NCBI GenBank assembly: GCA_947561715.1
Contig: OX387198.1
Coordinates: 4,526,001-4,590,000 of the forward strand
Direction: 5' to 3'
DNA from: Ascidia mentula
Taxonomy: Eukaryota > Chordata > Ascidiacea > Phlebobranchia > Ascidiidae
DNA: 64,000 bases
The notes under the pieces were generated by a model. The model did no database searches and was not told the origin of the DNA. It saw nothing but the letters and a program-made list of their open reading frames with translations. Position numbers and translations under genes: made by a program. Within the stretch, counting starts at the first letter, position 1. The number at the start of each line of letters is the position of its first letter. Of this stretch, positions 10,729 through 42,046 are shown in pieces.

Positions 10729-10736
10729 GCTTTTTC
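10729..10736. repeat. Target-site duplication, left copy
   Basis: GCTTTTTC directly abuts the left end of the foldback element and recurs exactly at 22879..22886 beyond the right end. Because the next terminal base pair is complementary, a 6-bp duplication (CTTTTT) with a one-base-longer terminus is also possible. Confidence 0.85.
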
Positions 10737-12093
10737 ACCACCCTCATTCTGGCAGAATTCTGGCAGAATAATTTTGCAAATTTGCCACATTCTACAAGGT
10801 ACAACAGGCATTTACTCAAAAATTGTTTTTTTTGGATTAGAATCAAATTACAGAGATGAGCAAGCAGATCAAACCTCAAAAAACATTTAAACAACATTTT
10901 CCGCAGCTGTATCAATCAAAAAAATCGCGAATTAAAAAAATCGCCTGGTTTTGCGATTCAGCATAATGGCGGCATGCGAAAAACTAGTCTAATACAAAGA
11001 ATTCTGCTCGGCGTTCTGGCAATAGGTGCCAATATTGACCAATATCAAGAGAACGGAAATTTAATTCTCTACAACATGCAATTAACAAATTTGAAATTAA
11101 GGTGCCGGATGACCTTCAAATCGCCGATTGAAGACGACCCGCTTTGAGCGAATCAGCAGCGTAATGGCGTAATGTCGGCATGCGAAAAACTTCCCTATTA
11201 AAACAATTCTGCTCGGCGTTCTGGCAATAGGTGCCAATATTGACCAATATCAAGAGAACGGAAATTTAATTCTCTACAACATGCAATTAACAAATTTGAA
11301 ATTAAGGTGCCGGATGACCTTCAAATCGCCGATTGAAGACGACCCGCTTTGAGCGAATCAGCGGCGTAATGGCGTAATGTCGGCATGCGAAAAACTTCCC
11401 TATTAAAACAATTCTGCTCGATGTTCTCGCAATAGGTGCCAATATTGACCAATATCAAGAGAACGGAAATTTAATTCTCTACAACATGCAATTAACAAAT
11501 TTGAAATTAAGGTGCCGGATGACCTTCAAATCGCCGATTGAAGACGACCCGCTTTGAGCGAATCAGCGGCGTAATGGCGTAATGTCGGCATGCGAAAAAC
11601 TTCCCTATTAAAACAATTCTGCTCGGCGTTCTCGCAATAGGTGCCAATATTGACCAATATCAAGAGAACGGAAATTTAATTCTCTACAACATGCAATTAA
11701 CAAATTTGAAATTAAGGTGCCGGATGACCTTCAAATCGCCGATTGAAGACGACCCGCTTTGAGCGAATCAGCGGCGTAATGGCGTAATGTCGGCATGCGA
11801 AAAACTTCCCTATTAAAACAATTCTGCTCGGCGTTCTCGCAATAGGTGCCAATATTGACCAATATCAAGAGAACGGAAATTTAATTCTCTACAACATGCA
11901 ATTAACAAATTTGAAATTAAGGTGCCGGATGACCTTCAAATCGCCCATTGAAGACGACCCGCTTTGAGCGAATCAGCAGCGTAATGGCGTAATGTCGGCA
12001 TGCGAAAAACTTCCCTATTAAAACAATTCTGCTCGGCGTTCTCGCAATAGGTGCCAATATTGACCAATATCAAGAGAACGGAAATTTAATTCT

Positions 12094-12448
12094 CTACAAC
12101 ATGCAATGTGATTAGTAAATCAAATCTGGATCAAAAAAACCAAAGGCCCCTGGCAGGCTGTCGATCGCACACCGTATCAATAATAATGTATTAAAATCCA
12201 AACACAGCAATCTTCAGACAGCTCAGATCGATTTATTTAGAGAAAAATATATTTCGCCTAAAACGGCATCATCAGTTTCTCCATTTACCAAAACTGCCTT
12301 ATTGATTCTATTTGAATAAGGCAGTTTTGGTAAATGGAGAAACTGATGATGCCGTTTTAGGCGAAATATATTTTTCTCTAAATAAATCGATCTGAGCTGT
12401 CTGAAGATTGCTGTGTTTGGATTTTAATACATTACTACAACATGCAAT
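12094..12448. mobile_element. Nested insertion carrying a perfect 118-bp hairpin
   Basis: A 327-bp insertion (12108..12434) interrupts the left array and is flanked by a 14-bp direct repeat of array sequence (12094..12107 and 12435..12448). Its last 251 bp are a perfect inverted repeat: arms 12184..12301 and 12317..12434 around a 15-nt loop. A 76-nt unique leader precedes the hairpin. Long, variable target duplications and inverted terminal pieces suit a Penelope-like or other target-primed retroelement rather than a cut-and-paste MITE; this is inference. Confidence 0.7.
12343..12366 (+). ncRNA. Hammerhead-ribozyme-like core (mirror copy on the minus strand at 12252..12275)
   Basis: The sequence CTGATGA, a short GCC/GGC stem with a six-base loop, then GAAA matches the conserved core of a hammerhead ribozyme (CUGANGA, stem II, GAAA), with one extra U before stem II. 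It lies in both arms of the hairpin. Hammerhead motifs are known from the terminal repeats of Penelope-like elements. Stems I and III were not resolved, so this is only a candidate. Confidence 0.3.
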
Positions 12449-14282
12449 TAACAAATTTGAAATTAAGGTACCGGATGACCTTCAAATCGCCGATTGAAGA
12501 CGACCCGCTTTGAGCGAATCAGCAGCGTAATGGCGTAATGTCGGCATGCGAAAAACTTCCTTATTAAAACAATTCTGCCCGGCGTTCTCGCAATAGGTGC
12601 CAATATTGACCAATATCAAGAGAACGGAAATTTAATTCTCTACAACATGCAATTAACAAATTTGAAATTAAGGTGCCGGATGACCTTCAAATCGCCGATT
12701 GAAGACGCCCCGGTTTGAGCGAATCAGCAGCGTAATGGCGTAATGTCGGCATGCGAAAAACTTCCCTATTAAAACAATTCTGCTCGGCGTTCTGGCAATA
12801 GGTGCCAATATTGACCAATATCAAGAGAACGGAAATTTAATTCTCTACAACATGCAATTAACAAATTTGAAATTAAGGTGCCGGATGACCTTCAAATCGC
12901 CGATTGAAGACGACCCGCTTTGAGCGAATCAGCAGCGTAATGGCGTAATGTCGGCATGCGAAAAACTTCCCTATTAAAACAATTCTGCTCGGCGTTCTGG
13001 CAATAGGTGCCAATATTGACTAATATCAAGAGAACGGAAATTTAATTCTCTACAACATGCAATTAACAAATTTGAAATTAAGGTGCCGGATGACCTTCAA
13101 ATCGCCGATTGAAGACGACCCGCTTTGAGCGAATCAGCAGCGTAATGGCGTAATGGCGTAATGTCGGCATGCGAAAAACTTCCCTATTAAAACAATTCTG
13201 CTCGGCGTTCTCGCAATAGGTGCCAATATTGACCAATATCAAGAGAACGGAAATTTAATTCTCTACAACATGCAATTAACAAATTTGAAATTAAGGTGCC
13301 GGATGACCTTCAAATCGCCGATTGAAGACGACCCGCTTTGAGCGAATCAGCAGCATAATGGCGTAATGTCGGCATGCGAAAAACTTCCCTATTAAAACAA
13401 TTCTGCTCGGCGTTCTGGCAATAGGTGCCAATATTGACCAATATCAAGAGAACGGAAATTTAATTCTCTACAACATGCAATTAACAAATTTGAAATTAAG
13501 GTGCCGGATGACCTTCAAATCGCCGATTGAAGACGACCCGCTTTGAGCGAATCAGCGGCGTAATGGCGTAATGTCGGCATGCGAAAAACTTCCCTATTAA
13601 AACAATTCTGCTCGGCGTTCTCGCAATAGGTGCCAATATTGACCAATATCAAGAGAACGGAAATTTAATTCTCTACAACATGCAATTAACAAATTTGAAA
13701 TTAAGGGGCCGGATGACCTTCAAATCGCCGATTGAAGACGACCCGCTTTGAGCGAATCAGCAGCGTAATGGCGTAATGTCGGCATGCGAAAAACTTCCCT
13801 ATTAAAACAATTCTGCTCGGCGTTCTGGCAATAGGTGCCAATATTGACCAATATCAAGAGAACGGAAATTTAATTCTCTACAACATGCAATTAACAAATT
13901 TGAAATTAAGGTGCCGGATGACCTTCAAATCGCCGATTGAAGACGACCCGCTTTGAGCGAATCAGCAGCGTAATGGCGTAATGTCGGCATGCGAAAAACT
14001 TCCCTATTAAAACAATTCTGCTCGGCGTTCTGGCAATAGGTGCCAATATTGACCAATATCAAGAGAACGGAAATTTAATTCTCTACAACATGCAATTAAC
14101 AAATTTGAAATTAAGGTGCCGGATGACCTTCAAATCGCCGATTGAAGACGACCCGCTTTGAGCGAATCAGCAGCGTAATGGCGTAATGTCGGCATGCGAA
14201 AAACTTCCCTATTAAAACAATTCTGCTCGGCGTTCTCGCAATAGGTGCCAATATTGACCAATATCAAGAGAACGGAAATTTA

Positions 14283-15644
14283 TTTATTGTTTCCTAATAC
14301 ATATTTTGCTATATTTATGTGTAGCTGATGGATTGTTTTCTTCATTTCTTTGTCATGTGCTGTTCAGATAAAATTGCAAATGGAACAAAATAAAAAGGTA
14401 TGTAAGATGCACAATGCTTTATGTTGGTTTATTACATAAGTTACACACTTACTAAAATATGTTTATTGGTGTAATAACAACTTATTTATGTGTTGCATTA
14501 TTTTTTGGGGAAAACAGACCTGTACAGTAAAACCTGCTGAATGCATGAACCAAGTGTAGCACAGTCTGGACTGAAGGACCAAACTTGATTACACCATAAG
14601 CCTTCTAAATTTATAACTTTGGCAGTATGCAAGTACAACATGTGTTCAATCACATTTGCACATATCAGCAAACTTGGCAATAATACACCACTTTATTTGT
14701 AAAAAATTGTATTTGTTAAATTCCGGGGCCGGGCCACGTAGCAGCCTTCGACATGCTACAAAATGTTGATTTGCGGACTGCAGTTTGTACACCCTTGGTG
14801 TAAACAAATACAAAACATTTTTGCTACATGTTTAGATGATGGATTGCTTTCTACATTTCTTTTTCATGTGCTCTTTGGATAAAATGGCAACAAATTTTAG
14901 AGGTATGTGACATATATAACGCTAAATACTATTTTTTCCAATACACACAAACATATTTATTTACTGTTTATCCTGTGACATCTGTTGCATAATTTATTTC
15001 TGTGACAAAATACTTTAAAAAAAATATGCTCTATTTTCTGTGCAGGTCGTGATTCATTTCTTCACTGTTCAGTTCGAAAAAAAAGGAAAAGTTGAATTGT
15101 GATGGTTACTTTTGAGGAAAAAAAAAATTGAAAATGTAGTGTAATTCATACTACACCTGACAAATTCCTGCAAATGTGTCATTGATAGGGGAGTCAGGAG
15201 ATAATAGGAGGGAGGTTATTAAAAAATTTTCATGTTAGGTACCACGAATCCATACGGGTTGATAAACTTTTCGGTATCTGAGATCAAATCCTAATAGAAT
15301 GCAACAGTACGGTCAAACGATAACGCGCGAAATATGTCCTCATCAACGTCAATGCGTCATAAGGGACAAACAAAAAGAAAGGCAATCTTCGACCAAAACG
15401 AATTTCAATGCCAGGACCAAACTTTATTTTATGAAAATAGGACTAAAGACCGCATATCAGCAACTCTATTAAAATAGTTTTGCCCGCGGGGATTGCCCGT
15501 CTTGTACTCCTGCGTCATAGAGATTCTCAGTTTCGTCACAAGGCAACCGGTGATGCATTGGGGTCAATTTTCTGGTTGAATGAGCAAGAAGTCACGTGGT
15601 ATAGCGATTTTCAGCGTGTTAGGTGCAGTTTTAGTGCATTTTTT
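14283..15644. other. Unique central spacer of the foldback element
   Basis: AT-rich and non-repetitive, with no ORF that looks like a transposase or any known domain. The last part (about 15480-15640) is more GC-rich and runs into the right array. It includes TGTACAGTAAAACC-type and poly-T stretches but no recognisable gene. It would form the loop if the two arms paired. Confidence 0.55.
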
Positions 15645-18600
15645 GTTTTAATAGGGAAGTTTTTCGCATGCCGGCATTACGCCATTACGCTGCTGATTCG
15701 CTCAAAGCGGGTCGTCTTCAATCGGCGATTTGAAGGTCATCCGGCACCTTAATTTCAAATTTGTTAATTGCATGTTGTAGAGAATTAAATTTCCGTTCTC
15801 TTGATATTGGTCAATATTGGCACCTATTGCGAGAACGCCGAGCAGAATTGTTTTAATAGGGAAGTTTTTCGCATGCCGACATTACGCCATTACGCTGCTG
15901 ATTCGCTCAAAGCGGGTCGTCTTCAATCGGCGATTTGAAGGTCATCCGGCACCTTAATTTCAAATTTGTTAATTGCATGTTGTAGAGAATTAAATTTCCG
16001 TTCTCTTGATATTGGTCAATATTGGCACCTGTTGCCAGAACGCCGAGCAGAATTGTTTTAGTAGGGAAGTTTTTCGCATGCCGGCATTACGCCATTACGC
16101 TGCTGATTCGCTCAAAGCGGGTCGTCTTCAATCGGCGATTTGAAGGTCATCCGGCACCTTAATTTCAAATTTGTTAATTGCATGTTGTAGAGAATTAAAT
16201 TTCCGTTCTCTTGATATTGGTCAATATTGGCACCTATTGCGAGAACGCCGAGCAGAATTGTTTTAATAGGGAAGTTTTTCGCATGCCGACATTACGCCAT
16301 TACGCTGCTGATTCGCTCAAAGCGGGTCGTCTTCAATCGGCGATTTGAAGGTCATCCGGCACCTTAATTTCAAATTTGTTAATTGCATGTTGTAGAGAAT
16401 TAAATTTCCGTTCTCTTGATATTGGTCAATATTGGCACCTGTTGCCAGAACGCCGAGCAGAATTGTTTTAGTAGGGAAGTTTTTCGCATGCCGGCATTAC
16501 GCCATTACGCTGCTGATTCGCTCAAAGCGGGTCGTCTTCAATCGGCGATTTGAAGGTCATCCGGCACCTTAATTTCAAATTTGTTAATTGCATGTTGTAG
16601 AGAATTAAATTTCCGTTCTCTTGATATTGGTCAATATTGGCACCTATTGCCAGAACGCCGAGCAGAATTGTTTTAATAGGGAAGTTTTTCGCATGCCGAC
16701 ATTACGCCATTACGCTGCTGATTCGCTCAAAGCGGGTCGTCTTCAATCGGCGATTTGAAGGTCATCCGGCACCTTAATTTCAAATTTGTTAATTGCATGT
16801 TGTAGAGAATTAAATTTCCGTTCTCTTGATATTGGTCAATATTGGCACCTATTGCGAGAACGCCGAGCAGAATTGTTTTAGTAGGGAAGTTTTTCGCATG
16901 CCGACATTACGCCATTACGCTGCTGATTCGCTCAAAGCGGGTCGTCTTCAATCGGCGATTTGAAGGTCATCCGGCACCTTAATTTCAAATTTGTTAATTG
17001 CATGTTGTAGAGAATTAAATTTCCGTTCTCTTGATATTGGTCAATATTGGCACCTCTTGCGAGAACGCCGAGCAGAATTGTTTTAATAGGGAAGTTTTTC
17101 GCATGCCGACATTACGCCATTACGCTGCTGATTCGCTCAAAGCGGGTCGTCTTCAATCGGCGATTTGAAGGTCATCCGGCACCTTAATTTCAAATTTGTT
17201 AATTGCATGTTGTAGAGAATTAAATTTCCGTTCTCTTGATATTGGTCAATATTGGCACCTGTTGCCAGAACGCCGAGCAGAATTGTTTTAGTAGGGAAGT
17301 TTTTCGCATGCCGGCATTACGCCATTACGCTGCTGATTCGCTCAAAGCGGGTCGTCTTCAATCGGCGATTTGAAGGTCATCCGGCACCTTAATTTCAAAT
17401 TTGTTAATTGCATGTTGTAGAGAATTAAATTTCCGTTCTCTTGATATTGGTCAATATTGGCACCTATTGCCAGAACGCCGAGCAGAATTGTTTTAATAGG
17501 GAAGTTTTTCGCATGCCGACATTACGCCATTACGCTGCTGATTCGCTCAAAGCGGGTCGTCTTCAATCGGCGATTTGAAGGTCATCCGGCACCTTAATTT
17601 CAAATTTGTTAATTGCATGTTGTAGAGAATTAAATTTCCGTTCTCTTGATATTGGTCAATATTGGCACCTGTTGCCAGAACGCCGAGCAGAATTGTTTTA
17701 GTAGGGAAGTTTTTCGCATGCCGGCATTACGCCATTACGCTGCTGATTCGCTCAAAGCGGGTCGTCTTCAATCGGCGATTTGAAGGTCATCCGGCACCTT
17801 AATTTCAAATTTGTTAATTGCATGTTGTAGAGAATTAAATTTCCGTTCTCTTGATATTGGTCAATATTGGCACCTATTGCGAGAACGCCGAGCAGAATTG
17901 TTTTAATAGGGAAGTTTTTCGCATGCCGACATTACGCCATTACGCTGCTGATTCGCTCAAAGCGGGTCGTCTTCAATCGGCGATTTGAAGGTCATCCGGC
18001 ACCTTAATTTCAAATTTGTTAATTGCATGTTGTAGAGAATTAAATTTCCGTTCTCTTGATATTGGTCAATATTGGCACCTGTTGCCAGAACGCCGAGCAG
18101 AATTGTTTTAGTAGGGAAGTTTTTCGCATGCCGGCATTACGCCATTACGCTGCTGATTCGCTCAAAGCGGGTCGTCTTCAATCGGCGATTTGAAGGTCAT
18201 CCGGCACCTTAATTTCAAATTTGTTAATTGCATGTTGTAGAGAATTAAATTTCCGTTCTCTTGATATTGGTCAATATTGGCACCTATTGCGAGAACGCCG
18301 AGCAGAATTGTTTTAATAGGGAAGTTTTTCGCATGCCGACATTACGCCATTACGCTGCTGATTCGCTCAAAGCGGGTCGTCTTCAATCGGCGATTTGAAG
18401 GTCATCCGGCACCTTAATTTCAAATTTGTTAATTGCATGTTGTAGAGAATTAAATTTCCGTTCTCTTGATATTGGTCAATATTGGCACCTGTTGCCAGAA
18501 CGCCGAGCAGAATTGTTTTAGTAGGGAAGTTTTTCGCATGCCGGCATTACGCCATTACGCTGCTGATTCGCTCAAAGCGGGTCGTCTTCAATCGGCGATT

Positions 18601-21600
18601 TGAAGGTCATCCGGCACCTTAATTTCAAATTTGTTAATTGCATGTTGTAGAGAATTAAATTTCCGTTCTCTTGATATTGGTCAATATTGGCACCTATTGC
18701 CAGAACGCCGAGCAGAATTGTTTTAATAGGGAAGTTTTTCGCATGCCGACATTACGCCATTACGCTGCTGATTCGCTCAAAGCGGGTCGTCTTCAATCGG
18801 CGATTTGAAGGTCATCCGGCACCTTAATTTCAAATTTGTTAATTGCATGTTGTAGAGAATTAAATTTCCGTTCTCTTGATATTGGTCAATATTGGCACCT
18901 ATTGCGAGAACGCCGAGCAGAATTGTTTTAGTAGGGAAGTTTTTCGCATGCCGACATTACGCCATTACGCTGCTGATTCGCTCAAAGCGGGTCGTCTTCA
19001 ATCGGCGATTTGAAGGTCATCCGGCACCTTAATTTCAAATTTGTTAATTGCATGTTGTAGAGAATTAAATTTCCGTTCTCTTGATATTGGTCAATATTGG
19101 CACCTCTTGCGAGAACGCCGAGCAGAATTGTTTTAATAGGGAAGTTTTTCGCATGCCGACATTACGCCATTACGCTGCTGATTCGCTCAAAGCGGGTCGT
19201 CTTCAATCGGCGATTTGAAGGTCATCCGGCACCTTAATTTCAAATTTGTTAATTGCATGTTGTAGAGAATTAAATTTCCGTTCTCTTGATATTGGTCAAT
19301 ATTGGCACCTGTTGCCAGAACGCCGAGCAGAATTGTTTTAGTAGGGAAGTTTTTCGCATGCCGGCATTACGCCATTACGCTGCTGATTCGCTCAAAGCGG
19401 GTCGTCTTCAATCGGCGATTTGAAGGTCATCCGGCACCTTAATTTCAAATTTGTTAATTGCATGTTGTAGAGAATTAAATTTCCGTTCTCTTGATATTGG
19501 TCAATATTGGCACCTATTGCCAGAACGCCGAGCAGAATTGTTTTAATAGGGAAGTTTTTCGCATGCCGACATTACGCCATTACGCTGCTGATTCGCTCAA
19601 AGCGGGTCGTCTTCAATCGGCGATTTGAAGGTCATCCGGCACCTTAATTTCAAATTTGTTAATTGCATGTTGTAGAGAATTAAATTTCCGTTCTCTTGAT
19701 ATTGGTCAATATTGGCACCTATTGCGAGAACGCCGAGCAGAATTGTTTTAGTAGGGAAGTTTTTCGCATGCCGACATTACGCCATTACGCTGCTGATTCG
19801 CTCAAAGCGGGTCGTCTTCAATCGGCGATTTGAAGGTCATCCGGCACCTTAATTTCAAATTTGTTAATTGCATGTTGTAGAGAATTAAATTTCCGTTCTC
19901 TTGATATTGGTCAATATTGGCACCTCTTGCGAGAACGCCGAGCAGAATTGTTTTAATAGGGAAGTTTTTCGCATGCCGACATTACGCCATTACGCTGCTG
20001 ATTCGCTCAAAGCGGGTCGTCTTCAATCGGCGATTTGAAGGTCATCCGGCACCTTAATTTCAAATTTGTTAATTGCATGTTGTAGAGAATTAAATTTCCG
20101 TTCTCTTGATATTGGTCAATATTGGCACCTGTTGCCAGAACGCCGAGCAGAATTGTTTTAGTAGGGAAGTTTTTCGCATGCCGGCATTACGCCATTACGC
20201 TGCTGATTCGCTCAAAGCGGGTCGTCTTCAATCGGCGATTTGAAGGTCATCCGGCACCTTAATTTCAAATTTGTTAATTGCATGTTGTAGAGAATTAAAT
20301 TTCCGTTCTCTTGATATTGGTCAATATTGGCACCTATTGCCAGAACGCCGAGCAGAATTGTTTTAATAGGGAAGTTTTTCGCATGCCGACATTACGCCAT
20401 TACGCTGCTGATTCGCTCAAAGCGGGTCGTCTTCAATCGGCGATTTGAAGGTCATCCGGCACCTTAATTTCAAATTTGTTAATTGCATGTTGTAGAGAAT
20501 TAAATTTCCGTTCTCTTGATATTGGTCAATATTGGCACCTATTGCGAGAACGCCGAGCAGAATTGTTTTAGTAGGGAAGTTTTTCGCATGCCGACATTAC
20601 GCCATTACGCTGCTGATTCGCTCAAAGCGGGTCGTCTTCAATCGGCGATTTGAAGGTCATCCGGCACCTTAATTTCAAATTTGTTAATTGCATGTTGTAG
20701 AGAATTAAATTTCCGTTCTCTTGATATTGGTCAATATTGGCACCTATTGCGAGAACGCCGAGCAGAATTGTTTTAATAGGGAAGTTTTTCGCATGCCGAC
20801 ATTACGCCATTACGCTGCTGATTCGCTCAAAGCGGGTCGTCTTCAATCGGCGATTTGAAGGTCATCCGGCACCTTAATTTCAAATTTGTTAATTGCATGT
20901 TGTAGAGAATTAAATTTCCGTTCTCTTGATATTGGTCAATATTGGCACCTGTTGCCAGAACGCCGAGCAGAATTGTTTTAGTAGGGAAGTTTTTCGCATG
21001 CCGGCATTACGCCATTACGCTGCTGATTCGCTCAAAGCGGGTCGTCTTCAATCGGCGATTTGAAGGTCATCCGGCACCTTAATTTCAAATTTGTTAATTG
21101 CATGTTGTAGAGAATTAAATTTCCGTTCTCTTGATATTGGTCAATATTGGCACCTATTGCGAGAACGCCGAGCAGAATTGTTTTAATAGGGAAGTTTTTC
21201 GCATGCCGACATTACGCCATTACGCTGCTGATTCGCTCAAAGCGGGTCGTCTTCAATCGGCGATTTGAAGGTCATCCGGCACCTTAATTTCAAATTTGTT
21301 AATTGCATGTTGTAGAGAATTAAATTTCCGTTCTCTTGATATTGGTCAATATTGGCACCTATTGCGAGAACGCCGAGCAGAATTGTTTTAGTAGGGAAGT
21401 TTTTCGCATGCCGACATTACGCCATTACGCTGCTGATTCGCTCAAAGCGGGTCGTCTTCAATCGGCGATTTGAAGGTCATCCGGCACCTTAATTTCAAAT
21501 TTGTTAATTGCATGTTGTAGAGAATTAAATTTCCGTTCTCTTGATATTGGTCAATATTGGCACCTATTGCCAGAACGCCGAGCAGAATTGTTTTAATAGG

Positions 21601-22650
21601 GAAGTTTTTCGCATGCCGACATTACGCCATTACGCTGCTGATTCGCTCAAAGCGGGTCGTCTTCAATCGGCGATTTGAAGGTCATCCGGCACCTTAATTT
21701 CAAATTTGTTAATTGCATGTTGTAGAGAATTAAATTTCCGTTCTCTTGATATTGGTCAATATTGGCACCTATTGCGAAAACGCCGAGCAGAATTGTTTTA
21801 ATAGGGAAGTTTTTCGCATGCCGACATTACGCCATTACGCTGCTGATTCGCTCAAAGCGGGTCGTCTTCAATCGGCGATTTGAAGGTCATCCGGCACCTT
21901 AATTTCAAATTTGTTAATTGCATGTTGTAGAGAATTAAATTTCCGTTCTCTTGATATTGGTCAATATTGGCACCTATTGCGAGAACGCCGAGCAGAATTG
22001 TTTTAGTAGGGAAGTTTTTCGCATGCCGACATTACGCCATTACGCTGCTGATTCGCTCAAAGCGGGTCGTCTTCAATCGGCGATTTGAAGGTCATCCGGC
22101 ACCTTAATTTCAAATTTGTTAATTGCATGTTGTAGAGAATTAAATTTCCGTTCTCTTGATATTGGTCAATATTGGCACCTATTGCGAGAACGCCGAGCAG
22201 AATTGTTTTAATAGGGAAGTTTTTCGCATGCCGACATTACGCCATTACGCTGCTGATTCGCTCAAAGCGGGTCGTCTTCAATCGGCGATTTGAAGGTCAT
22301 CCGGCACCTTAATTTCAAATTTGTTAATTGCATGTTGTAGAGAATTAAATTTCCGTTCTCTTGATATTGGTCAATATTGGCACCTGTTGCCAGAACGCCG
22401 AGCAGAATTGTTTTAATAGGGAAGTTTTTCGCATGCCGACATTACGCCATTACGCTGCTGATTCGCTCAAAGCGGGTCGTCTTCAATCGGCGATTTGAAG
22501 GTCATCCGGCACCTTAATTTCAAATTTGTTAATTGCATGTTGTAGAGAATTAAATTTCCGTTCTCTTGATATTGGTCAATATTGGCACCTATTGCCAGAA
22601 CGCCGAGCAGAATTCTTTGTATTAGACTAGTTTTTCGCATGCCGCCATTA
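15645..22650 (-). repeat. Right-arm 205-bp tandem repeat array with higher-order structure
   Basis: About 34 copies of the left-arm unit in reverse complement, marked by GCATGCC at 205-bp spacing (15666, 15871 and so on). Three diagnostic sites (a/g/c ttgc g/c ag; tttta a/g tagg; gcc g/a g/a catt) sort units into types A-E. In order from 15.8 kb they read A B A B C D E B C B A B A B C D E B C D E B C D A B A D C A D A B. The nine-unit block A B A B C D E B C occurs twice, 2,050 bp apart, and a four-unit B C D E period recurs. This is the signature of unequal exchange or segmental amplification. Confidence 0.88.
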
Positions 22651-22878
22651 TGCTGAATCGCAAAACCAGGCGATTTTTTTAATTCGCGATTTTTTTGATT
22701 GATACAGCTGCGGAAAATGTTGTTCAAATGTTTTTTGAGGTTTGATCTGCTTGCTCATCTCTGTAATTTGATTCTAATCAAAAAAAAAACAATTTTTGAG
22801 TAAATGCCTGTTGTACCTTGTAGAATGTGGCAAATTTGCAAAATTATTCTGCCAGAATTCTGCCAGAATGAGGGTGGT

Positions 22879-22886
22879 GCTTTTTC
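22879..22886. repeat. Target-site duplication, right copy
   Basis: GCTTTTTC, identical to 10729..10736, immediately follows the inverted terminus ending gagggtggt. Confidence 0.85.
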
Positions 22887-23529: not shown

Positions 23530-25077
23530 ATGTTATTCAAAGTGCGGTCGCAAAAACTATTTAGCACTGTGCTCGCTGCGTCACCTGCAATTTTATCCTT
23601 ACGTGGCTTATCCCAAAAGAAGTGTGTTATTTACCACACCGGAAATGTGAATCCCTACGAAAATCTTGCGTTTGAGCAATGGTTGTACGAAAATGAAAGT
23701 TTTGTCGAAAAGGACGGTCTCTTTGTCTGGAGAAATGAGCCTTGTGTGGTGATAGGCCGACACCAAAATCCATGGAAAGAGACACATGTTCCATGTATGC
23801 TGTGAATAAGTGATGCATCTGTAGATACAAGTTCCCTAATTTACTTTAGTAATCCTTACAATACCTTTGTGGGCATTGTGAGTATATGTTTAAGTGCTTG
23901 CATTTTTTCTGATTAGTTTTCTGATATTAGGTAATGCTTACATTGCTTACAACGCAACAGGATTTTGGATGGAGAGCATTACTAACTGTCTGCTGTATAG
24001 TGAACATAGAATATGCATTTGCTGTGTAAACTATTTTGTTTATGCTGTACTAAGTCAGTTATATCTTTACAGTACTCAACAAGGACAATGTCAAACTGTG
24101 TCGTCGTAGCAGCGGTGGTGGGGCAGTTTATCACGATCTTGGAAATGTCAACTTCACTTTTTTCACTGACAGAGCAAGTTACGTCAGAAAACCAAATCTT
24201 CAAACAATTGTTGATGGAATTTTGAACAAATGGCCCCACACCGATCTCTCCATTAATTGCAGACATGACATCATGTTGAAAGAAATGTATGAGTACACTG
24301 GAGTGTGTTTGAGAATAGTAAAGAGATAAACCTGAAAGCCTACATAACGCATGTTTTCTTGGTATTAGAACAACAAATATGAACAGTTAATGTCCTTATA
24401 AAACCAACAAAAATGATACACTTCCGTTTAACTGGGTTTTACAAAATGTACTTTTGTTTTCTAGTTTCAAAATATCTGGATCTTCGGCAAAACTGGGGCC
24501 GAAAACTGCTTACCACCATTGTACATTGCTAGTGAACTCGGACAAAGATAATTTGTTGAAATACCTGACCAGCAAACCTTTCAGTTTCCATTGCAAATCA
24601 ACTGAAAGCATCAGGTCTTCTGTATCGAATTTATGTGACGAAAACCCTTTGATAAGTTTCGAGGATGTGAGAAACTGTGTGTCGGAGAGTTATGCCTCCA
24701 AGCATGTCGAGTCACAAGTTTTTGCAGTGGAAGACATGTATAAAGATCCAGTGGTGCAAAAAATTTCAAGCACACTACAAGAGTGGGACTGGCAGTTTGG
24801 CAAGACGCCTTATTTTAGCATAGAAAAAGAGTTCTTTTCAGATAAATTAGGTTTGATTGCCATATTGGTCTCAATTAAACATGGAATTATAGATGATATA
24901 TCAATAAAATCAACTAAACTAAATGCTGATATTACAAGGGATTTTTCGGAATTGTTAGTTGGTGTTCGGTTTTCATATAGTGATGTTTTTAGTGTAATGA
25001 AAGACAATGAATTTGGTATCAATCCACTTAAACAGTTCAATTTTTTATCTAAAGCTGTTATGCAGTTTTTATGTTAA
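23530..25077 (+). CDS. LIPT1: Lipoyltransferase 1, mitochondrial
   Basis: Three exons: 23530..23794, 24073..24286 and 24465..25077 (1092 nt, 363 aa; the human protein is 373 aa). It belongs to the lipoate-protein ligase A/B (BPL_LplA_LipB) family, which transfers lipoyl groups to the E2 subunits of 2-oxoacid dehydrogenases in mitochondria. The N-terminus is basic and serine/leucine-rich, consistent with a targeting peptide. Family motifs in order are NPYENLAFEQWLY, VVIGRHQNPW, the RRSSGGGAVYHDLGNVNFTF lipoyl-binding loop split across exons 1 and 2, FKISGSSAKLG, TAYHHCTLLV and WDWQFGKTPYFS. Exon junctions align with the human protein without gaps. An AATAAA lies at 25180, about 100 nt past the stop. 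Its gene is divergent from SLC35B2. Confidence 0.93.
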
Positions 25078-33681: not shown

Positions 33682-35615
33682 ATTTCCAGGTTAATACTTA
33701 CAAAACATAAACAAAACACAACGATCAATTACTCAGATGCTGAGCAGAATAAGTAGGTCTATACCATGTTATCTACATACGATCCAGTCCATGTTCTGCA
33801 ATACACAATTAAAATTTTGTTTACTTCGGTGCCAAATTGGAAAGGATTTTTTTGGCAAATGATTTCTAATCAACAGGAATTTTTCTACATATATTTAGAT
33901 CTAAGCACCTGCGGACTAAATTTTGCAAATATTTATCTTGGAAAAACATACTTCCAATAAGTTTGGCGAAATTTAAGTTTACGACCGTGTTTACAAATGT
34001 TTTTACTAAAGTTGCAAAGAAAGCATTTAAAAAAAGGATATATATTGATGCTGAACCATTTGCAGCTAACAATGTTGTTTGCTAAGCCTGTTGACTTTGA
34101 TCAATACTGCTATTAACTCAAATACTGTATTAAAACCTTAAAAACTTTTTTACACAAAACCAAATTCAACAACTTGTCAACTGACTGGAACAATGAACGA
34201 GAGAGTAGTTTAAACTTTAATCCGGGGCATTAGGGTATTTATCAACTCCATTGGTATCCTAAACTTTCTTCTTTTGTAGAAAGGGTTCATGTTTAAAGCA
34301 AATTAATAAACTTGGTTGCAAGAAAATTGTTACGTTAATATGACTTCAATACAGGTAGTTCCGATAAATAAGTTCGGGTTGCAATAATAATTAAAGTTGA
34401 TTTTGTGTAAAATAGTTTTGCAATTTAGGTCATTTTAGACTATTGGGCAATCTAAGCTGATGAGAAACCTCAAGTTTGCTACATTCTTAGCCACATTAGG
34501 ACAGCACAGGCTATTAAAACCCACAACAAGAATGACTGAGAGCCGCAGTAGGCAATCACCACCATGCTTTGTATCATAGTAGACTATGCCCCAATACATA
34601 AACCTCTGAACACTCGGTCAATGTAAGTGACAGAAAAAAGGTTTTTCACTTTTAGCCGGGTGTAATGTCACTTACCCTGGAGTCAGCTCATGGCAACTGT
34701 TGGCAAGCTTTATTGTTTGTCAAGACATGATTTAGCGCCGCATTTCCTTCTGTTGATACGGTCTCAGTAGTAGCCTGATGAAAACATGTATGACTGGTCG
34801 AAAAATAGCAGGACCCCCTTGTAATTGAAAGGGCTATGAGCCATTTTAGGACAATAAGAAATAAGACCGAAATGTTACGACACTGCTTAGTCAACATATG
34901 TAAACCCAGCAAAAACAAACCGAGATACAATTTTTACGAAGCCTCATTTTAAAGGGTGTTTCAGTACTTTTGGCTAATCTTGTGGGGTTCAAATCAATTT
35001 TCTAATGCAAGTAACGTTATGTTGTAAGCCAAATGCCAGATGATGGCCCGCACTTGCGTTCGCCCATAGCACGATCGGCGGTCCCTGGACAAGTTTGTGC
35101 GGAGCACTAACTAGAAAAGATAGCCTATTAACTTACAAACAACTTTATAAATCCATAATTTATGCGATTCAGCAATATATGGCTAGTAAGTTGTTCAAAT
35201 AAGACATTCACGTCGTATGTGGGTCATTTTTTGCGAAGTGAAAGTGCAGAACATGCTTTTGGCATTAATTTTTGGCATTGTTTCAAACCCCTTTTGCTAC
35301 GTAACCGGAGGTTTTCCACTTTTTGTTGTTCCTTGTCACGAAATTTTCACTTTCAGATAAATCGTTGATAATCTTTGTTTGTTTGTTTCCAGTTCTGATG
35401 AATTGAATGACATGAATCACAATTCCTTGTAAAGTGGCAACTGGATTCCGAAACTGAGTTGCAGAGCGGAATGTTGCTGTTACGTCACTTTACGTGACAT
35501 TACAATCAACGCTATCCATTCCCCAAACACGTTTACTCCGCCGTTATAAAGCAAGAAACTCGCCTGCAAGTCGTTACAGTTGTTGTGGTAGGCATATAGC
35601 TTGATTGGTGTGACA
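33682..35615. other. Intergenic region between SAMD4 and the first CUB-sushi gene
   Basis: Contains the upstream regions of two divergently oriented genes. No plausible exon was found. From about 35362 the sequence is homologous to 38628 onward, marking the left edge of the tandem duplication that made the two CUB-sushi copies. Confidence 0.5.
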
Positions 35616-38088
35616 ATGTTAAGTGTAAAATTGCTTTTTTCTGTGCTGGCATTGCTGTTTGTTCCAGGTAAGCTTTTGTTTTATTTTGTTGCGTAACAAT
35701 CGTTTAGATTAGAATGCTTTCATTGTTGTTGTGTAAACTTTGGTTTAACAGAGTTCTTGCTATGTTTTTTGCACACAACAAACTCGTGATAATGCCATTG
35801 CATATATTGTAGCTTACACAATATCATTTGGTACGCTGCAAGCCATAAACTACTTGACACAGACCCCACGGGCGGGGTTACAAACGAAACGACGCACCGA
35901 GACCCTAATAAAATGGGACATTGCTTGGGTAAACTTAGGCTTGGCTTCCAACTAAATCTAATGTGATCTTAAAAAAAGGTCTACGCGGCGACACTTTTTC
36001 TCCTAAGGGCCATGACTTGACAGAATTGTTCTCATACCGATGTAAATTAATAAGATCACTATTAAACAGATAGTCAATTGTAAGAATATAAATTCTAGGG
36101 TCAAGTGTTACGGATGGTTGATTCCTTTACTTGATTCCTTTATAACTCGATAGCAATTTCACCGTAATTGGTTTGCAGGTTTGGCAGCAAAATGCAAACC
36201 GAAACGATTTTTCAATCTTGATGGAGGATACGTAAGCAGCCCAGGTTATCCAAACTACTATGAGAAAAACCTGCAATGTCAATTTTCGTTCAGACCAGGG
36301 CCAGGTTACATCGTGGCGTTAACCTTTATAAGTTTTAAAACTCAAGGAATGAAAGATGATCTGCTGACTGATTATGTCCGGGTTAGTTAATTGTTCTACA
36401 TTTATACACGATATATATCATCATGGTGTATCAGCATTTTTCTGTACAAGTACTAATTTTTAATTTTCAAGCTATTGAAAATTAATTGTTGAAAACGTAC
36501 AAGTAATTTGAAGTACTTCCAATATTCCAATGGTTCTTGTTTGAATATTTTAATTTTTATAATCCTACAGATATTCGACGGGCCAAAATCAGCGAAACCC
36601 GATCCGGTGTATTTCTATGGTAACCCTGTTACGCCCTTTACCTTTATGTCCAAGACAGACAGAGTGCGAATGCGATTTAAAACCAATTTCGATGTCCATA
36701 AAACTGGGTTCAGAGCCTCATACAAATGTAAGTCAAGTGACATGTTGAACTGATTGCGTATACGGTTTAGTAATGGGTTTCTACAAAGTTAGCATGCCAC
36801 CTAACACACATGCAACATGTAACCTGGCTTTGTAAAAGATCTCAAATGGTATAAATTATGGTAACGACATTTCGTAAAGGCCAAAAATTCTTTTTGAGCT
36901 CCCAAATGTTCCCATTCCTTATCAAAAGTGTATTCTATCGCAACAGTCATCAACACAAGAACACATTGTGACGTAACAACTATTTCGAAAAATTCCACGA
37001 ATGTGACGTCATGTACAAACCTCACTTCGGGTTACGCCAGTGAATGCACGATTCAATGCAAGTACGGCTACAAGCTCATCGATCCAGACAAAAACGTGAC
37101 CAGATGTGAGAACGGTAAATTTACGAAGAGCTGCGAAATAGATCTGGCAGTGATGGTAGATGATTGCCAAAATAACGGAATGGTAAGTTTCGAAATGCGT
37201 TTATGTTTTGCATGAATCTGCTCGTATTTCAGAAATATGATAATCTGGTAGCCCTGCATAAATATATGGAGAATCGCTGTTAATACGTTTGTTTCGGCAG
37301 CTTGGCGAACTTTTGTACATGGTCCCTGAAGGTGCTCTATACAGTTATATATCGAGGGGGTCCACAGGACTTTCCCATACAATAATAATGTCAGTTTTGT
37401 GAAAACCCTGATCTTAAAAGTTATGGAAGTTTTAGTGGACATTTTATATTTCGAAATTGATGGACATGCAGCGCCAATATCGTGGAGTCCATATGACCTT
37501 TGAATTATACATCCATTAACAGTGGGCGAGTGGCAAGCAAAAATAAGTTCCACGAGCTGTGTTATTATCACTGTTTTCTTTGTTCAGGAGAACTGCCCTT
37601 TAACTAAGGATGAATTAAAGGAATTCTATCAGGCCAACCCGGTTAATGGCAGCGAGAAGGAGAAAGAAAGGGCGTACTTACTTAACGGGGAGTTAAATAA
37701 TAATGGGACATTTGTTCGAAGTAAGGCAGGCAGGGGAGGACCCCTTCCATGTCACCCCGAATTCTGCCGAAAAGAAAACAAATCGTTTACGCTTAACTGT
37801 TCACTTATTCCACAATGTGAGTTCGCTTATTTTCAAAAAGATATTTTTAAGGTATTTAAGCAGTGGGTAATTGATAAATGTTATGCGAAACTAAATTGGA
37901 AAATTTGGAATGAATTCGATACAATATTTTTTTTTTCAACATCGAGTTGGTTCCATTATAAATGCTTTGTAGCAATAATAAATTTAAGGCATATTTCATA
38001 TGTTCATTTAGTCTTCTACAAGTACCTGTGCTTCTACTGCCGCATCACCGTTAACTGCTACAAGAAAGGAACTACGGGCTTTGTTTAA
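35616..38088 (+). CDS. Secreted CUB-sushi protein with cysteine-rich C-terminal module (copy A)
   Basis: Six exons: 35616..35667, 36179..36381, 36571..36727, 36947..37182, 37588..37816 and 38012..38088 (954 nt, 317 aa). Exon 1 is a signal peptide (MLSVKLLFSVLALLFVPG). Exons 2-3 form a CUB domain (GGYVSSPGYPNYYEKNLQC, then IFDGP, FKTNF, GFRASY) that keeps only the first disulfide pair. Exon 4 is a sushi/CCP module with its CxxxxGYxL core and final CENGKF...SC. Exons 5-6 carry a module with seven cysteines (NCPLTKDELKEFY, then PCHPEFC, LNC, YLCFYC, VNC) that I do not recognise from named families but which recurs in three other genes here. Several N-glycosylation sequons are present. It is likely extracellular; function unknown. 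Confidence 0.85.
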
Positions 38089-38878
38089 ATCCTGCTCCAG
38101 CTGAGGCAAAATTTTCGAGGAAATTTATTTGTAAAAAATGACAAAATAATTTTTTGGATTTAATTGCTTGGATTTCCCAATCTAATGGGTGTTCTGTTTA
38201 TGTAAAATACGTATTTAAAATATTTGTCTTGGATAAACTTTGATCCAGCAATGCTGTGATGACGTCATGCAAAAGGAATACATGATGCAGCAAATTTCTA
38301 CCTTATTAAATGTCTGTACGTGACGTCGCACGATTCATTTGCAATATTTCTAGTGGGACTTTTATGTTTTTGCTTTGATTTCCGGCGAAAACAAAACTTC
38401 AAAATCTGCATTCTGTTTTGTGTGAATAAAAATGTAAACATTTTTGTTTTTACGTGAGTTGCTCACAAATCAGAGTGAATCAACGTACGGCTTTGATTTG
38501 TTTGTCGTACATTCCAGGCGGTCACTGGACAATTTCTTATAGAGCCTTACATAACATTACTGACTACACAGATGGATTTTTCGCGGTTCAGATATAAATA
38601 GCTGCTACCTGTACAACTAAGACATGAGTTGATAATCTTTTTTGTTTGTTTCCTGTTCTTATGAAATGGAATAACATACATCATACATACTTGTAAAGTG
38701 GCAACTGGATTCCGAAACTGAGTCGCATAGCGGAAATGATGCAGTTACATCACTTTACGTGACATATTTGTACGTGGCTTACCATACTCCAAACTCGTTT
38801 ATTTTGCCATTGCAAAGCAAGAAACAGGCTTGCAAGTCTATATAGTTGTTCTGGTAAGCGAATAGTTTAGCGGAGACC
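38089..38878. other. Spacer between tandem CUB-sushi copies
   Basis: The first part (to about 38520) is the 3' flank of copy A and is duplicated after copy B (about 43270-43720). The last part (from about 38628) is the promoter flank of copy B and resembles 35362-35615. No separate gene. Confidence 0.6.
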
Positions 38879-39797
38879 ATGTTAAGTGAAAAACTGTTTT
38901 TTGCTGTGCCTGCATTGCTATTTGTTCATGGTAAGCTGTTTTGTTTTGTGTTGTTGCGTAACAATCGTTCAGATTGGAATGCTTTCATTTTTGTAGTATG
39001 GCATTTGTTTGCACAAAATTGTTTGCTTGCAATATACTTTTTCGGGTAGGTATGAACATGAACATTGGAATGGGGCGCATTGTTCGGTTTAGAGGTTAGA
39101 GATTTTTACCGCAAGGCCTTGACTCCCAATACATTTTGATATGATTTCAAAGAGGTTCTCGCGCATAGTAAAAATACCATTGGGAATTGTACATCAAAAT
39201 ATTACATAAAAAATGTTTAATATTTGATAACATGAGAGAAGCTTCAATCACTCGATACCAAAAAATTTCATTCAGGTTTATTGGCAGCAAAATGCAAACC
39301 GAAACGATTTTCCAATCTTGATGGAGGATACGTAAGCACCCCAGGTTATCCGAGATTTTATGAGAACAACCTGCAATGCCAATTTTCGTTCAGACCAGGG
39401 CCGGGTTGCATCGTGGCGTTAACCTTTTTAAAATTTAAAACAGGAGGAAAGAGAAATGATCTGCTGACTGATTATGTCCGGGTATGTTAATTGTGCTACA
39501 TTTAAAACCACGTATGTTACACACGCTTCTATGTATAATATTCTGTATAAAAACAAGTTCTAAACTTTTAATGAACCTTATTTCAAGCTGTTGTCCGAAT
39601 ACCAGCCTGCATAATTATTTATTTTTGAAACGTGCAGTAATTGAAGTACACGAAATATTTCAATGGTTCTTGTTTAAAACGTTTTAATTTTTTATAATCC
39701 TCAGATATTCGACGGACCAAAATCAGCGAAGCCCGTTCCGGTGTATTTCTATGGTAACCCTGTTACGCCCTTCACCTTCGTGTCCAAGACAGACAGA

Positions 39798-39805
39798 GTA
39801 CGAAT
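39798..39805. repeat. hAT target-site duplication, left copy
   Basis: GTACGAAT precedes the element terminus and is repeated exactly at 42039..42046; in intact copy A the sequence at this spot reads straight through. Confidence 0.9.
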
Positions 39806-42038
39806 TAGTGATGTGTTGCACCGGATCCGGGTACCCGGACCCGGCCGGATATTGACCAATTTTTAATACCCGGACCCGGCCGGATAATACAGTTAATTTT
39901 ATCGGATAGTTGGGAAAGCATTTTTGTCCTAAAAGCGGACAAACATTTCGCAAATTACTCGTTTTTGGTACCCAGTCTGTTATACTCGCCGTGGGCACCA
40001 ACATTCGAATTGGTGCCCACGAGCGTGTCTTTTGCGTTTTTGCAGAAGTTTTGTTGTGTTTGGTAAGTTGGAAATTGTTTTTCAACTTTGGAAGGTTTCA
40101 CACAGGTTGGTTTTGTTGTGTTTTTAACTGTTTTAGCGTAATTTGTCATAAAAATGGAGAAATTGGCTTCCGTTTTTTCTTCTAATAAGTCTGCTACATC
40201 AAATGCAGACACGGGTGATTCATTGGTTGAACAAAAAGGTAGGGCGCAAAGTTATGTTTCTGAAATAGAGCGTTTGAATGATGAATTGGCGTCGTTAAAA
40301 AAGTTTCAAAACGATCATATGCACGCTTTGGAAAAGTCTCGTATGTTGGCAAGGGATATGGAGGAACAGTTGCGCTTAGATAATAGGGCGCAAAAGGCTA
40401 CTGAAAACGCTAAGAATGCCGAATTAAAAGCTTTGCAAAAATTGTTGAAGAATAATAGTGAGGTGCGTACTTCGACATTGGTTGCTCTTGGCACAAGGCC
40501 CGTTGGTAATGTTCCCGAGGTTAATGATATTTCGTCAACTGAAGTTCCCAATTCTGACCCTGGAACTTCGGCTCCGCCTTATGAGGTCCCTTCTCCACCT
40601 TATGAATCGCATTTATATCCTGATTTGTCAACAGTTTCGCATGAACAAACGACAGCGCCAGATGTTAAACCGGTTCTCATGACAGGCGATGAGACCGAGA
40701 TTTTGACGCCACCTGAGTCGGCGCATTTTTCTGGCGGGCTAATGAATCCCGGCCGGCCGTCGGGTTTTCGCTTGACTACACCGGTGTTGCGGAAAGACAA
40801 ACAGGGACCGTCACAGACGTTAAGAATAGATAATTCAACAAAGAAGCGTGTTGACTTGGCACAGTTGATACGTGCCACTCCTGGGAAAGAGCGGACGTGG
40901 CTTGAATTCAATGTTCGCGCATTGCGTCAGATGGGTTTAACGACAGAGAATTTGTTAACAACTTTAATGGCGACGGCGGAAATGCATTCGTCTTTGCAGA
41001 GTTATCTTCATGCGTTACTTGTCAATGTGAATATGTCTCCTGATGAAAAGTTAGTTACTTTACAGTCGCATGTTGAGGCTACTTTTCGAAAGTCTCATTT
41101 GTCGTTGATTCAGCAGTTGCGTTCTATGTTGGAGAATATCAGGTTTGATAGTACTGTAATTTCTCCTGTGCAGGCGATAACGAATGCCTTCGCACAAGAA
41201 GGAATCTTGTTGGATAATTTGAAATCCGATAGTCCATATCTTCGTTTGATTGAGGAGATTTTGTTGCGTAAATTACCAACGAGTGTGGCAATGCAGATCG
41301 AAGGTATGTTATGGCCGGATATTCAAAAGGTTTTGCATAAAATGTTCACTCTTGCTTCGGCACGTGCGAGTGGTTCTGACCCTGCACGTAAGGTTATGGT
41401 GGCTCAATTTGATGAGGGTAAGTCTTCAATGGTTAATAATTCTGTTCAATTGAAGGATTTGTCTGATAAAGTGTCGGAATTGCATGGTCTTGTTTTGCAA
41501 AAAACGTCTGATCGTGGTCAATTACAAAAGTGTGCAGACTCGAGGGGCCAGGTTCCCACATCGTCAATGCCTAACACTAACACTCAATCTTGTGCTAAAT
41601 GTTTTTTTTGTCAAAGGGAAGGTCATTTTGCTACGACTTGTGATCTCAAGCGTCTCATCCAGGAAAACGGTTGGCATCTGTATTCCGATTCGGGGGAGGA
41701 GATTCATTCTACAATGCCTCGTCGTGGTGGCGGCGGCGGCGGCCGTGTCAGAGGCGCTACAATGACTGGCCGAGGTGGACAATTGGTAAGATTTTTCTGT
41801 TATTTGTTATGAAAGTTTTTCGTGACGTGTTATACCATATTAATAAATGCCCACGTTTATTTGTTCCACTCATGACAGGCTAACCTTAACATAGCATTTT
41901 GTTTGGCAATCAAACATTTTTGCCATAATAAACGAATCGGCGTTAACAAACTGCCGGATCCAAATTATCCGGCCGGATTTGATTGACAACTATCCGGATC
42001 CGGCCGGGCCGGATAATTTGGAACTGGGAACATCACTA
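39806..42038. mobile_element. hAT-type DNA transposon carrying a Gag-like gene
   Basis: The 2,233-bp element has 8-bp target duplications and short inverted ends (TAGTGATGT...ACATCACTA), both features of the hAT superfamily. Subterminal regions are GC-rich and repeat CCGGCCGGAT/CCGGATCCGG motifs at both ends, as is common for transposase-binding sites. The only long ORF inside encodes a Gag-like protein and not a hAT transposase, so movement would need an enzyme supplied elsewhere. No LTRs or reverse transcriptase are present. Confidence 0.85.
40154..41812 (+). CDS. Gag-like protein with zinc knuckle inside the hAT-type element
   Basis: An uninterrupted 552-codon ORF. Residues about 35-105 look like a coiled coil (IERLNDELASLKKFQ and following heptads). 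A proline-rich stretch follows (PPYEVPSPPYE). Residues about 230-410 are helix-rich and capsid-like. Near residue 485 is one CCHC zinc knuckle (CFFCQREGHFATTC, spacing C-x2-C-x4-H-x4-C). The tail is glycine/arginine-rich (RRGGGGGGRVRG). This order is typical of retrotransposon Gag. A GTAAGA donor sits in the ORF at about 41787, so the last residues may be spliced away. No protease or polymerase follows. The element encloses it completely, which points to gene capture. It could instead be a host Gag-derived gene. Confidence 0.7.
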   Translation: MEKLASVFSSNKSATSNADTGDSLVEQKGRAQSYVSEIERLNDELASLKKFQNDHMHALEKSRMLARDMEEQLRLDNRAQKATENAKNAELKALQKLLKNNSEVRTSTLVALGTRPVGNVPEVNDISSTEVPNSDPGTSAPPYEVPSPPYESHLYPDLSTVSHEQTTAPDVKPVLMTGDETEILTPPESAHFSGGLMNPGRPSGFRLTTPVLRKDKQGPSQTLRIDNSTKKRVDLAQLIRATPGKERTWLEFNVRALRQMGLTTENLLTTLMATAEMHSSLQSYLHALLVNVNMSPDEKLVTLQSHVEATFRKSHLSLIQQLRSMLENIRFDSTVISPVQAITNAFAQEGILLDNLKSDSPYLRLIEEILLRKLPTSVAMQIEGMLWPDIQKVLHKMFTLASARASGSDPARKVMVAQFDEGKSSMVNNSVQLKDLSDKVSELHGLVLQKTSDRGQLQKCADSRGQVPTSSMPNTNTQSCAKCFFCQREGHFATTCDLKRLIQENGWHLYSDSGEEIHSTMPRRGGGGGGRVRGATMTGRGGQLVRFFCYLL

Positions 42039-42046
42039 GTACGAAT
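42039..42046. repeat. hAT target-site duplication, right copy
   Basis: GTACGAAT, identical to 39798..39805, after which copy B exon 3 resumes in frame. Confidence 0.9.

What the first reader, a model, noticed from the sequence alone, without database searches (positions are those of the whole stretch)
10737..22878. A 12-kb foldback transposon built from inverted 205-bp satellite arrays
Seen directly: near-identical inverted unique ends, opposite-orientation arrays of the same 205-bp unit, a unique spacer and a perfect 8-bp duplication of flanking sequence. This joins satellite DNA and a mobile element in one unit and could seed satellite arrays elsewhere. Foldback elements are known (FB, TU), but I know none with a 205-bp unit and these termini. 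The family assignment is open.
Basis: partly seen in the sequence, partly recalled or inferred. Interest (0 to 1): 0.9.

Follow-up and report, generated by a model that had tools for sequence, protein, structure and literature searches.

The report
Sea-squirt jumping gene carrying satellite arrays
A 12-kb stretch of a sea-squirt chromosome is one of dozens of copies of a non-coding jumping gene whose two mirror-image arms are satellite-like arrays of a 205-base unit; it belongs to a known kind of element, but is an unusually large and clear case of satellite-like DNA living inside a mobile element.

Summary
Window 10737-22878 is a non-autonomous foldback DNA transposon: inverted 230-bp ends, inverted arrays of a 205-bp unit (about 15 left, 34 right), a 1.36-kb middle and an 8-bp target duplication (GCTTTTTC). 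The genome matches Ascidia mentula kaAscMent1.1. Pairing tips by hand gave 55 copies (1.7-26.4 kb) on nine chromosomes. Of 30 examined, 22 have perfect 8-bp duplications and 2 perfect 9-bp ones. Joined flanks from 5 of 12 copies match sites elsewhere that lack the element. Two corrections: the spacer is shared with many copies, and the units have not visibly seeded free satellites (about 1401 expected inside elements, 1436 counted in the genome). Units differ by about 1.4-1.6% within an element, opposite arms included, but by 4.6% between elements, so arrays are homogenised locally. One copy has arms with the same variant order from both tips. No copy read encodes a recognisable transposase, and no hit of five transposase families lies inside a paired element, so the superfamily stays open. 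Closest known are Tetris (Drosophila virilis, about 220-bp units) and Galileo. It is a new family of a known kind.

The parts
10729..10736 (.). target-site duplication, left copy, GCTTTTTC
   Evidence: sequence; identical to right copy; family-wide 8-bp duplications
10737..10966 (+). left 230-bp unique terminus; tip ACCACCCTCATTCTGGCAGAATTCTGGCAGAAT
   Evidence: tip pattern found 57 forward and 47 reverse in the genome, reversed-pattern control 0
10967..12107 (+). left array, outer part, about 5.6 units of 205 bp; first unit is an edge variant
12108..12434 (.). 327-bp secondary insertion with internal inverted repeat, flanked by 14-bp duplication CTACAACATGCAAT; not taken as part of the family
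12435..14282 (+). left array, inner part, about 9 units
14283..15642 (+). middle domain (spacer), 1360 bp, no stop-to-stop frame of 70 aa or more; shared with many other copies
15643..22650 (-). right array, about 34 units in inverted orientation; contains a multi-unit block duplication
22648..22878 (-). right terminus, inverted copy of the left one
22879..22886 (.). target-site duplication, right copy, GCTTTTTC

Best explanation
It is a non-autonomous cut-and-paste DNA transposon of foldback structure. A transposase made elsewhere recognises the ACCACCCTCATTCTGGCAGA tips and inserts the element with an 8-bp (rarely 9-bp) staggered cut. The 205-bp arrays are the inner part of the long inverted repeats. 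They grow, shrink and are homogenised within each inserted copy by unequal exchange or conversion, including exchange between the two inverted arms. Shown: tips, duplications, copy number, empty sites (as continuous matches through the junction), within-element homogenisation, and one multi-unit block duplication. Inferred: a transposase acting in trans, a cut-and-paste mode, and exchange or conversion as the homogenising process.
For: Tip pattern 57+47 matches, control 0; shortened tips add partners (30 matches, control 3). 55 tip-paired copies of 1.7-26.4 kb, median 5.7 kb, on 9 chromosomes. Duplications: 16 of 20 perfect 8-bp, 6 of 10 further copies perfect 8-bp and one perfect 9-bp; 0 of 380 in mismatched pairings. 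Joined flanks of 5 of 12 copies match through the junction elsewhere, 20 of 40 scored rows (181 candidates). Unit divergence over 312 units: same arm 1.4%, opposite arm of the same element 1.6%, different elements 4.6%; nearest unit in the same element for 0.63, against 0.09 with shuffled labels in the smaller set. Mirrored variant order of both arms in L021, 0 of 1000 shuffles. Block duplication in the right arm of the window, 4 of 1000 shuffles, one of 13 arms tested.
Against: No recognisable transposase in any copy read: the middles have short frames and no Pfam match above cut-off, and none of 49 MULE, 21 P, 39 hAT, 6 KDZ and 50 Merlin rows lies inside one of the 55 elements. Mirrored order was clear in only 1 of 8 testable elements, weak in a second (23 of 1000) and absent in six; units at equal distance from the two tips are hardly closer than other cross-arm pairs (0.98% against 1.05%). 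Averaged per element, within-element divergence is higher, 2.0% (same arm) and 2.1% (opposite arms). Own opposite terminus is joint nearest in only 7 of 20 copies. Of 30 copies 3 have no duplication (5 of 8 positions or fewer) and 3 an imperfect one.
Confidence: 0.9

Rival explanations
1. The arrays are ordinary satellite DNA that happens to sit between two short inverted-repeat elements, or that captured the ends, so the 12-kb unit never moved as a whole.
For: Array length varies freely and arms are unequal in 20 of 21 copies by unit-hit counts; arrays are homogenised locally as in satellites.
Against: Units are almost all inside tip-bounded elements (expected about 1401, counted 1436). Duplications flank the outer tips and empty sites lack the whole unit. 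The order tip, array, middle, inverted array, tip recurs in the 21 copies read, except that L019 and L023 have practically no middle and L034 a truncated right terminus. It remains possible that single copies grew their arrays only after inserting.
Confidence: 0.03
2. The palindrome is an assembly artefact (false inverted duplication).
For: Long inverted arrays are hard to assemble; L021 has arms with identical variant order.
Against: The two flanks differ and share an 8-bp duplication in most copies, the middle is asymmetric, arms differ in length and, in most testable copies, in variants, and there are no Ns in the window. PMC11109543 (passages) reports a PacBio SEQUEL II plus Hi-C assembly of QV 64.9. 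Exact unit counts could still be wrong.
Confidence: 0.03
3. It is a P-superfamily (Galileo-like) foldback element mobilised by one of the P-type transposases present in this genome.
For: P-type transposase frames exist, one of 479 aa. The duplication length fits P elements (recalled) and Galileo of D. willistoni (7-8 bp, PMC4168063, passages). Galileo also has about 210-bp repeats in the inverted repeats of one subfamily (PMC3573991, passages). One P hit lies about 8 kb from an old middle-domain relic and another 2.4-2.6 kb from a copy; this may be chance.
Against: No tip within the two P loci read, which reach 1.5 kb either side of the hit; terminus similarity to them negligible; no GTANTAC-like duplication consensus; two duplications of 9 bp (L028, in a GT repeat; C72:4142654).
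Confidence: 0.25
4. It is a Mutator- or Merlin-type foldback element (8-9 bp or longer duplications).
For: 8-bp with a few 9-bp duplications and no clear consensus, like Tetris, 8-10 bp, and Tm1, 8-10 bp; both transposase families are present in the genome.
Against: None of 49 MULE or 50 Merlin rows lies inside a tip-paired element, the nearest being 98 kb and 37 kb away.
Confidence: 0.35

Closest known systems
Tetris (Drosophila virilis and D. americana), PMC4079207 (abstract and passages read)
   Same: Non-autonomous foldback; outer flanking domain, then about 220-bp tandem repeats, then an inner domain and a variable middle; 8-10 bp duplications.
   Different: No match to the four primers printed in the paper, a small test. 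The paper reports three structurally complete copies, against 55 tip-paired copies here. In its assembly 44 of 69 contigs with units lacked the flanking domain; here nearly all units stay inside tip-bounded elements.
Galileo (Drosophila, P superfamily), PMC3573991 and PMC4168063 (passages read)
   Same: Foldback-like; inverted repeats with about 210-bp tandem repeats in one subfamily; unequal arms; the longest repeats are in non-autonomous copies; longest D. willistoni copy 9,021 bp.
   Different: 7-bp (7-8 bp in D. willistoni) duplications with a consensus; transposase-bearing copies known. Here mostly 8 bp, no clear consensus, no transposase copy found, up to about 34 units in one arm of a copy read.
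Tm1 (Meloidogyne, Mutator/Foldback), PMC3169594 (passages read)
   Same: Composite inverted repeats with variable tandem-repeat number; 8-10 bp, mostly 9-bp, duplications without consensus.
   Different: Repeat unit about 14 bp; some copies encode a putative Mutator-type transposase.
FB of D. melanogaster and TU of sea urchin
   Same: Long inverted repeats made of tandem repeats.
   Different: Much shorter units; compared from memory only (a search for TU papers gave none).

Membership tests
Foldback-type (FB-like) DNA transposon, structural class | Long terminal inverted repeats able to fold back, with internal tandem repeats | tested here: met
Foldback-type (FB-like) DNA transposon, structural class | Mobile: dispersed copies with target-site duplications and empty sites | tested here: met
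   empty sites for 5 of 12 copies queried, not for the window copy; seen as coordinates and identity, not as letters
Foldback-type (FB-like) DNA transposon, structural class | A partner element encoding a transposase with the same ends | tested here: inconclusive
Tetris | Sequence homology to Tetris flanking domain and TIR-220 unit | tested here: inconclusive
   only four primers printed in the paper were compared; they match no better than chance; full Tetris sequence not compared
Galileo / P superfamily | 7-bp (7-8 bp) duplication with GTANTAC consensus | tested here: not met
   8-bp, no clear consensus among 16 perfect duplications, occasional 9 bp
Galileo / P superfamily | THAP-type P transposase in a related copy | tested here: inconclusive
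   P transposase domains present in genome (21 rows) but not in any tip-paired copy
Mutator superfamily | MULE transposase in a related copy | tested here: inconclusive
   49 MULE rows, none in a tip-paired copy
Merlin superfamily | IS1595-type transposase in a related copy | tested here: inconclusive
   50 rows, none in a tip-paired copy
Satellite DNA family | Large arrays independent of other elements | tested here: not met
   unit count fits elements alone; unassembled arrays cannot be excluded

The most novel reading that the evidence does not exclude
Each insertion works as a private satellite nursery: a short palindromic founder (old relics have about one unit or less per arm) inserts, and its arms are then rebuilt at the new site by arm-to-arm copying of the hairpin, giving mirror-ordered arms (as in L021) that later expand by block duplication (as in the window copy), so that nearly every insertion ends up with its own unit variants.
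Probability: 0.25. Interest if true: 0.7.

Novelty: new member of a known kind. Interest (0 to 1): 0.45.

Why it matters
It supplies, in one long-read genome, dozens of separate arrays of the same unit, each bounded by recognisable tips and most by a duplication. That makes questions about how tandem arrays start, grow and homogenise testable with natural replicates, and extends the link between foldback transposons and satellite-like DNA, described for Drosophila, to a tunicate. It also differs from Tetris: arrays of tens of units have stayed inside elements with intact ends.

Tried and rejected
Autonomous partner: family searches with MULE, P, hAT, KDZ and Merlin models gave 49, 21, 39, 6 and 50 rows; a script comparing all 165 with the 55 element intervals found none inside. 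Two P and two MULE loci (about 1.5 kb either side of each hit) hold no tip at up to 5 mismatches of 19. The seven copies fetched because they at first lacked a partner tip mostly proved to have shortened or diverged partner tips; no partner was found for L042 and L044. One (L040) holds a retrotransposon-like insertion (my reading of its frames).

Transposase-binding motif: the tip word TTCTGGCA also occurs in the 205-bp unit, but 162 of 2000 dinucleotide shuffles share as many 8-mers, and only 53 of 227 units carry it, so I do not claim it.

Coding potential of the middles: frames are short, and 6 translated fragments (5 from middles like that of L025, 1 from the spacer type) gave no Pfam family above its cut-off; one weak match (Ocnus, 14.6 bits, cut-off 23). 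My impression that one looks like a reverse-transcriptase remnant is not supported by that search.

Unit divergence: a first version took units by an anchor word and so dropped diverged units (227 kept, for example 2 of about 22 full units in the right arm of L025). It gave 0.8-1.0% within an arm, 1.05% across arms, 4.2% between elements. One search repeats it on 312 units found by BLAST and gives 1.4, 1.6 and 4.6%; I report those. The order tests and the shuffled-label control still rest on the 227.

Free satellite: rejected on counts. Middle lengths of copies not read were estimated from search coordinates, so 1401 is approximate. Tip listings were capped: one search listed 100 of 104.

Literature: foldback, satellite DNA, transposon, tandem repeats (28 papers, 15 listed); ascidian genome papers (5, 4 listed); foldback with ascidian and transposable element (0); (23 papers, 15 listed); TU elements (0); Ascidia mentula with transposable element and repeat (1, not read); (0 each). 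'Not described before' rests on these searches only.
Full report
What was checked. The window is bases 4,526,001-4,590,000 of contig C2 in a 195.8-Mb genome of 79 contigs. The copy held is slightly smaller (195.8 against 197.0 Mb, 79 against 95 scaffolds), and C70 is 21,170,000 bp where the paper prints 21,171,019 for a scaffold of that rank. The species name rests on that match.

The element. From outside in: duplication GCTTTTTC; a 230-bp terminus starting ACCACCCTCATTCTGGCAGAATTCTGGCAGAAT; an array of 205-bp units; a 1360-bp middle; a longer inverted array; the inverted terminus; GCTTTTTC again. The outer 579 bp of both ends agree at 575 positions. The left array is interrupted by a 327-bp insertion. 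The 1360-bp middle has no stop-to-stop frame of 70 aa.

The family. The 33-bp tip with up to 3 mismatches occurs 57 times forward and 47 reverse, the reversed control 0; 100 of the 104 places were listed. A shorter pattern that excludes the main tip form found 30 places (control 3), mostly tips with one instead of two copies of an 11-bp repeat, which supplied partners for apparently single tips. Pairing by hand gave 55 elements, 1.7-26.4 kb, median 5.7 kb, 422 kb in all, on nine contigs that correspond to the nine chromosomes. I read 21 of them in full (20 plus the window); others in part. All 21 have the order tip, array, middle, inverted array, tip, except that L019 and L023 have practically no middle and L034 a truncated right terminus. 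Two subfamilies show: A, with termini about 1.1% different between elements, and B, with about 5.5%. Middles come in at least two unrelated types, with recombinants.

Transposition. Perfect 8-bp duplications flank 16 of 20 copies (the 21 read, less L022, which was scored later). The four others are L023 (5 of 8) and L026 (1 of 8), L030 (6 of 8), and L028, which sits in a GT repeat where a 9-bp repeat fits. Of ten further copies, six are perfect at 8 bp, one at 9 bp (C72:4142654), one 7 of 8, one 8 of 9, one 5 of 8. In sum 22 of 30 are perfect at 8 bp and 2 at 9 bp, 3 are imperfect and 3 have none (5 of 8 or fewer). Mismatched pairings gave 0 of 380. Joined flanks of 12 copies were searched in the genome (40 of 181 candidates scored). 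Matches run through the junction for five copies: L032 (4 places, 96-97%, same length), L034 (1, 98%, same length), L024 (1, 96%, 4 bp shorter), L020 (12, 82-85%, about 14 bp shorter) and L033 (2, 82-83%, about 5 bp shorter); 20 of 40 rows. Seven more rows cross the L021 junction by only 7-19 bp and are not counted. I saw coordinates, lengths and identity, not the letters of those sites, so where the small gaps fall is not known. For the window copy no empty site was found.

Where the units are. A 34-bp word of the unit, up to 3 mismatches, occurs 1436 times (control 0). The 55 elements should hold about 1531 units, of which 91.5% are detectable by the rate seen in the copies read (301 of 329), that is about 1401. 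The exact places that were listed (a capped list, all on contig C1) lie inside known elements. So free satellite arrays, if any, are small or missing from the assembly.

How the arrays evolve. In 312 nearly full units from 21 elements, mean divergence is 1.4% in the same arm, 1.6% across arms of one element and 4.6% between elements (3.3% within A, 3.1% within B, 5.7% between A and B); averaged per element it is 2.0% and 2.1%. Of 161 distinct unit sequences 8 are shared between elements, and the nearest unit lies in the same element for 0.63 of units. In the smaller anchor-based set the last figure is 0.69 against 0.09 with shuffled labels. Arms are unequal in 20 of 21 copies. In L021 the order of unit variants from the tip inwards is the same in both arms over all 15 shared positions, 0 of 1000 shuffles; L019 shows a weaker sign at the inner end (23 of 1000); the six others tested do not. 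Over all elements, units at equal distance from the two tips are hardly closer than other cross-arm pairs. The window's right arm contains a repeated multi-unit block (lag 14 units, 4 of 1000 shuffles; one of 13 arms tested). This fits formation of mirror arms followed by independent growth and turnover in each copy. It does not prove when the arms were copied.

Old relatives. L065 is a 673-bp palindrome with the same kind of tips, flanked by GAGCTTTT on both sides; its arms of about 336 bp leave room for about half a unit beyond the terminus, and its termini are 73-83% like the modern ones. L063 is a similar relic. They suggest a short ancestor, though decay of longer copies is possible.

Partner transposase. 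Not found. Rows: MULE 49, P 21, hAT 39, KDZ 6, Merlin 50; none lies inside the 55 elements. P transposase frames are present, with upstream frames that look THAP-like (the THAP reading is mine, no family search was run). Two P rows lie near family sequences (2.4-2.6 kb and about 8 kb); this may well be chance.

Comparison. Tetris is the closest in design: flanking domain, about 220-bp units, 8-10 bp duplications, no transposase copy found, and a proposed role in satellite birth (abstract and passages). Galileo has about 210-bp units in one subfamily and a 9,021-bp longest copy in D. willistoni (passages). Neither is shown to be the same family: the Tetris primers do not match (a small test) and the Galileo duplication consensus is absent. 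Works like: a foldback element of the Tetris/Galileo design. Member of: a sequence family that my literature searches did not find described, superfamily open. What stands out is the number of copies with intact ends, the arm length, and that the arrays have stayed inside the elements.

Noticed in passing
G000 C67:901883/904707, C69:20459405/20461437, C70:13360173/13362619, C72:6932638/6935084, C1:15138481/15140127: Merlin/IS1595-type transposase fragments occur as inverted pairs 1.6-2.8 kb apart, as if another palindromic element carries transposase sequence in both arms.
   Followed up: no
window 12108-12434: 327-bp insertion with an internal inverted repeat inside the left array, flanked by a 14-bp duplication.
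   Followed up: partly
L026:4164-4239: A tRNA-Thr (GGT) gene-like sequence, with a partial inverted copy, in the middle domain of one copy.
   Followed up: no
L070 (C67:15339450-15342650): Four tips in the same orientation within 3 kb and no inverted partner there: apparently a tandem duplication of element ends.
   Followed up: partly
window 35401-43636: Blocks of 64-239 bp duplicated at spacings of 3.1-5.4 kb (80-92% alike), with a gag-like 556-aa frame at 40142-41812 bearing a zinc-knuckle match below cut-off.
   Followed up: no
window 24391-25077: Open frame of a lipoyl protein ligase family gene, near the element's right side.
   Followed up: no
C1:13353096-13370068: Two copies lie side by side about 70 bp apart; the second has a perfect duplication GAAAAATG.
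   Followed up: partly
L023 (C2:2513146) and L060/L061 (C2:2473159): These two copies share both flanks at 95-97%, so the region was duplicated; L023 has lost its clean left junction.
   Followed up: partly
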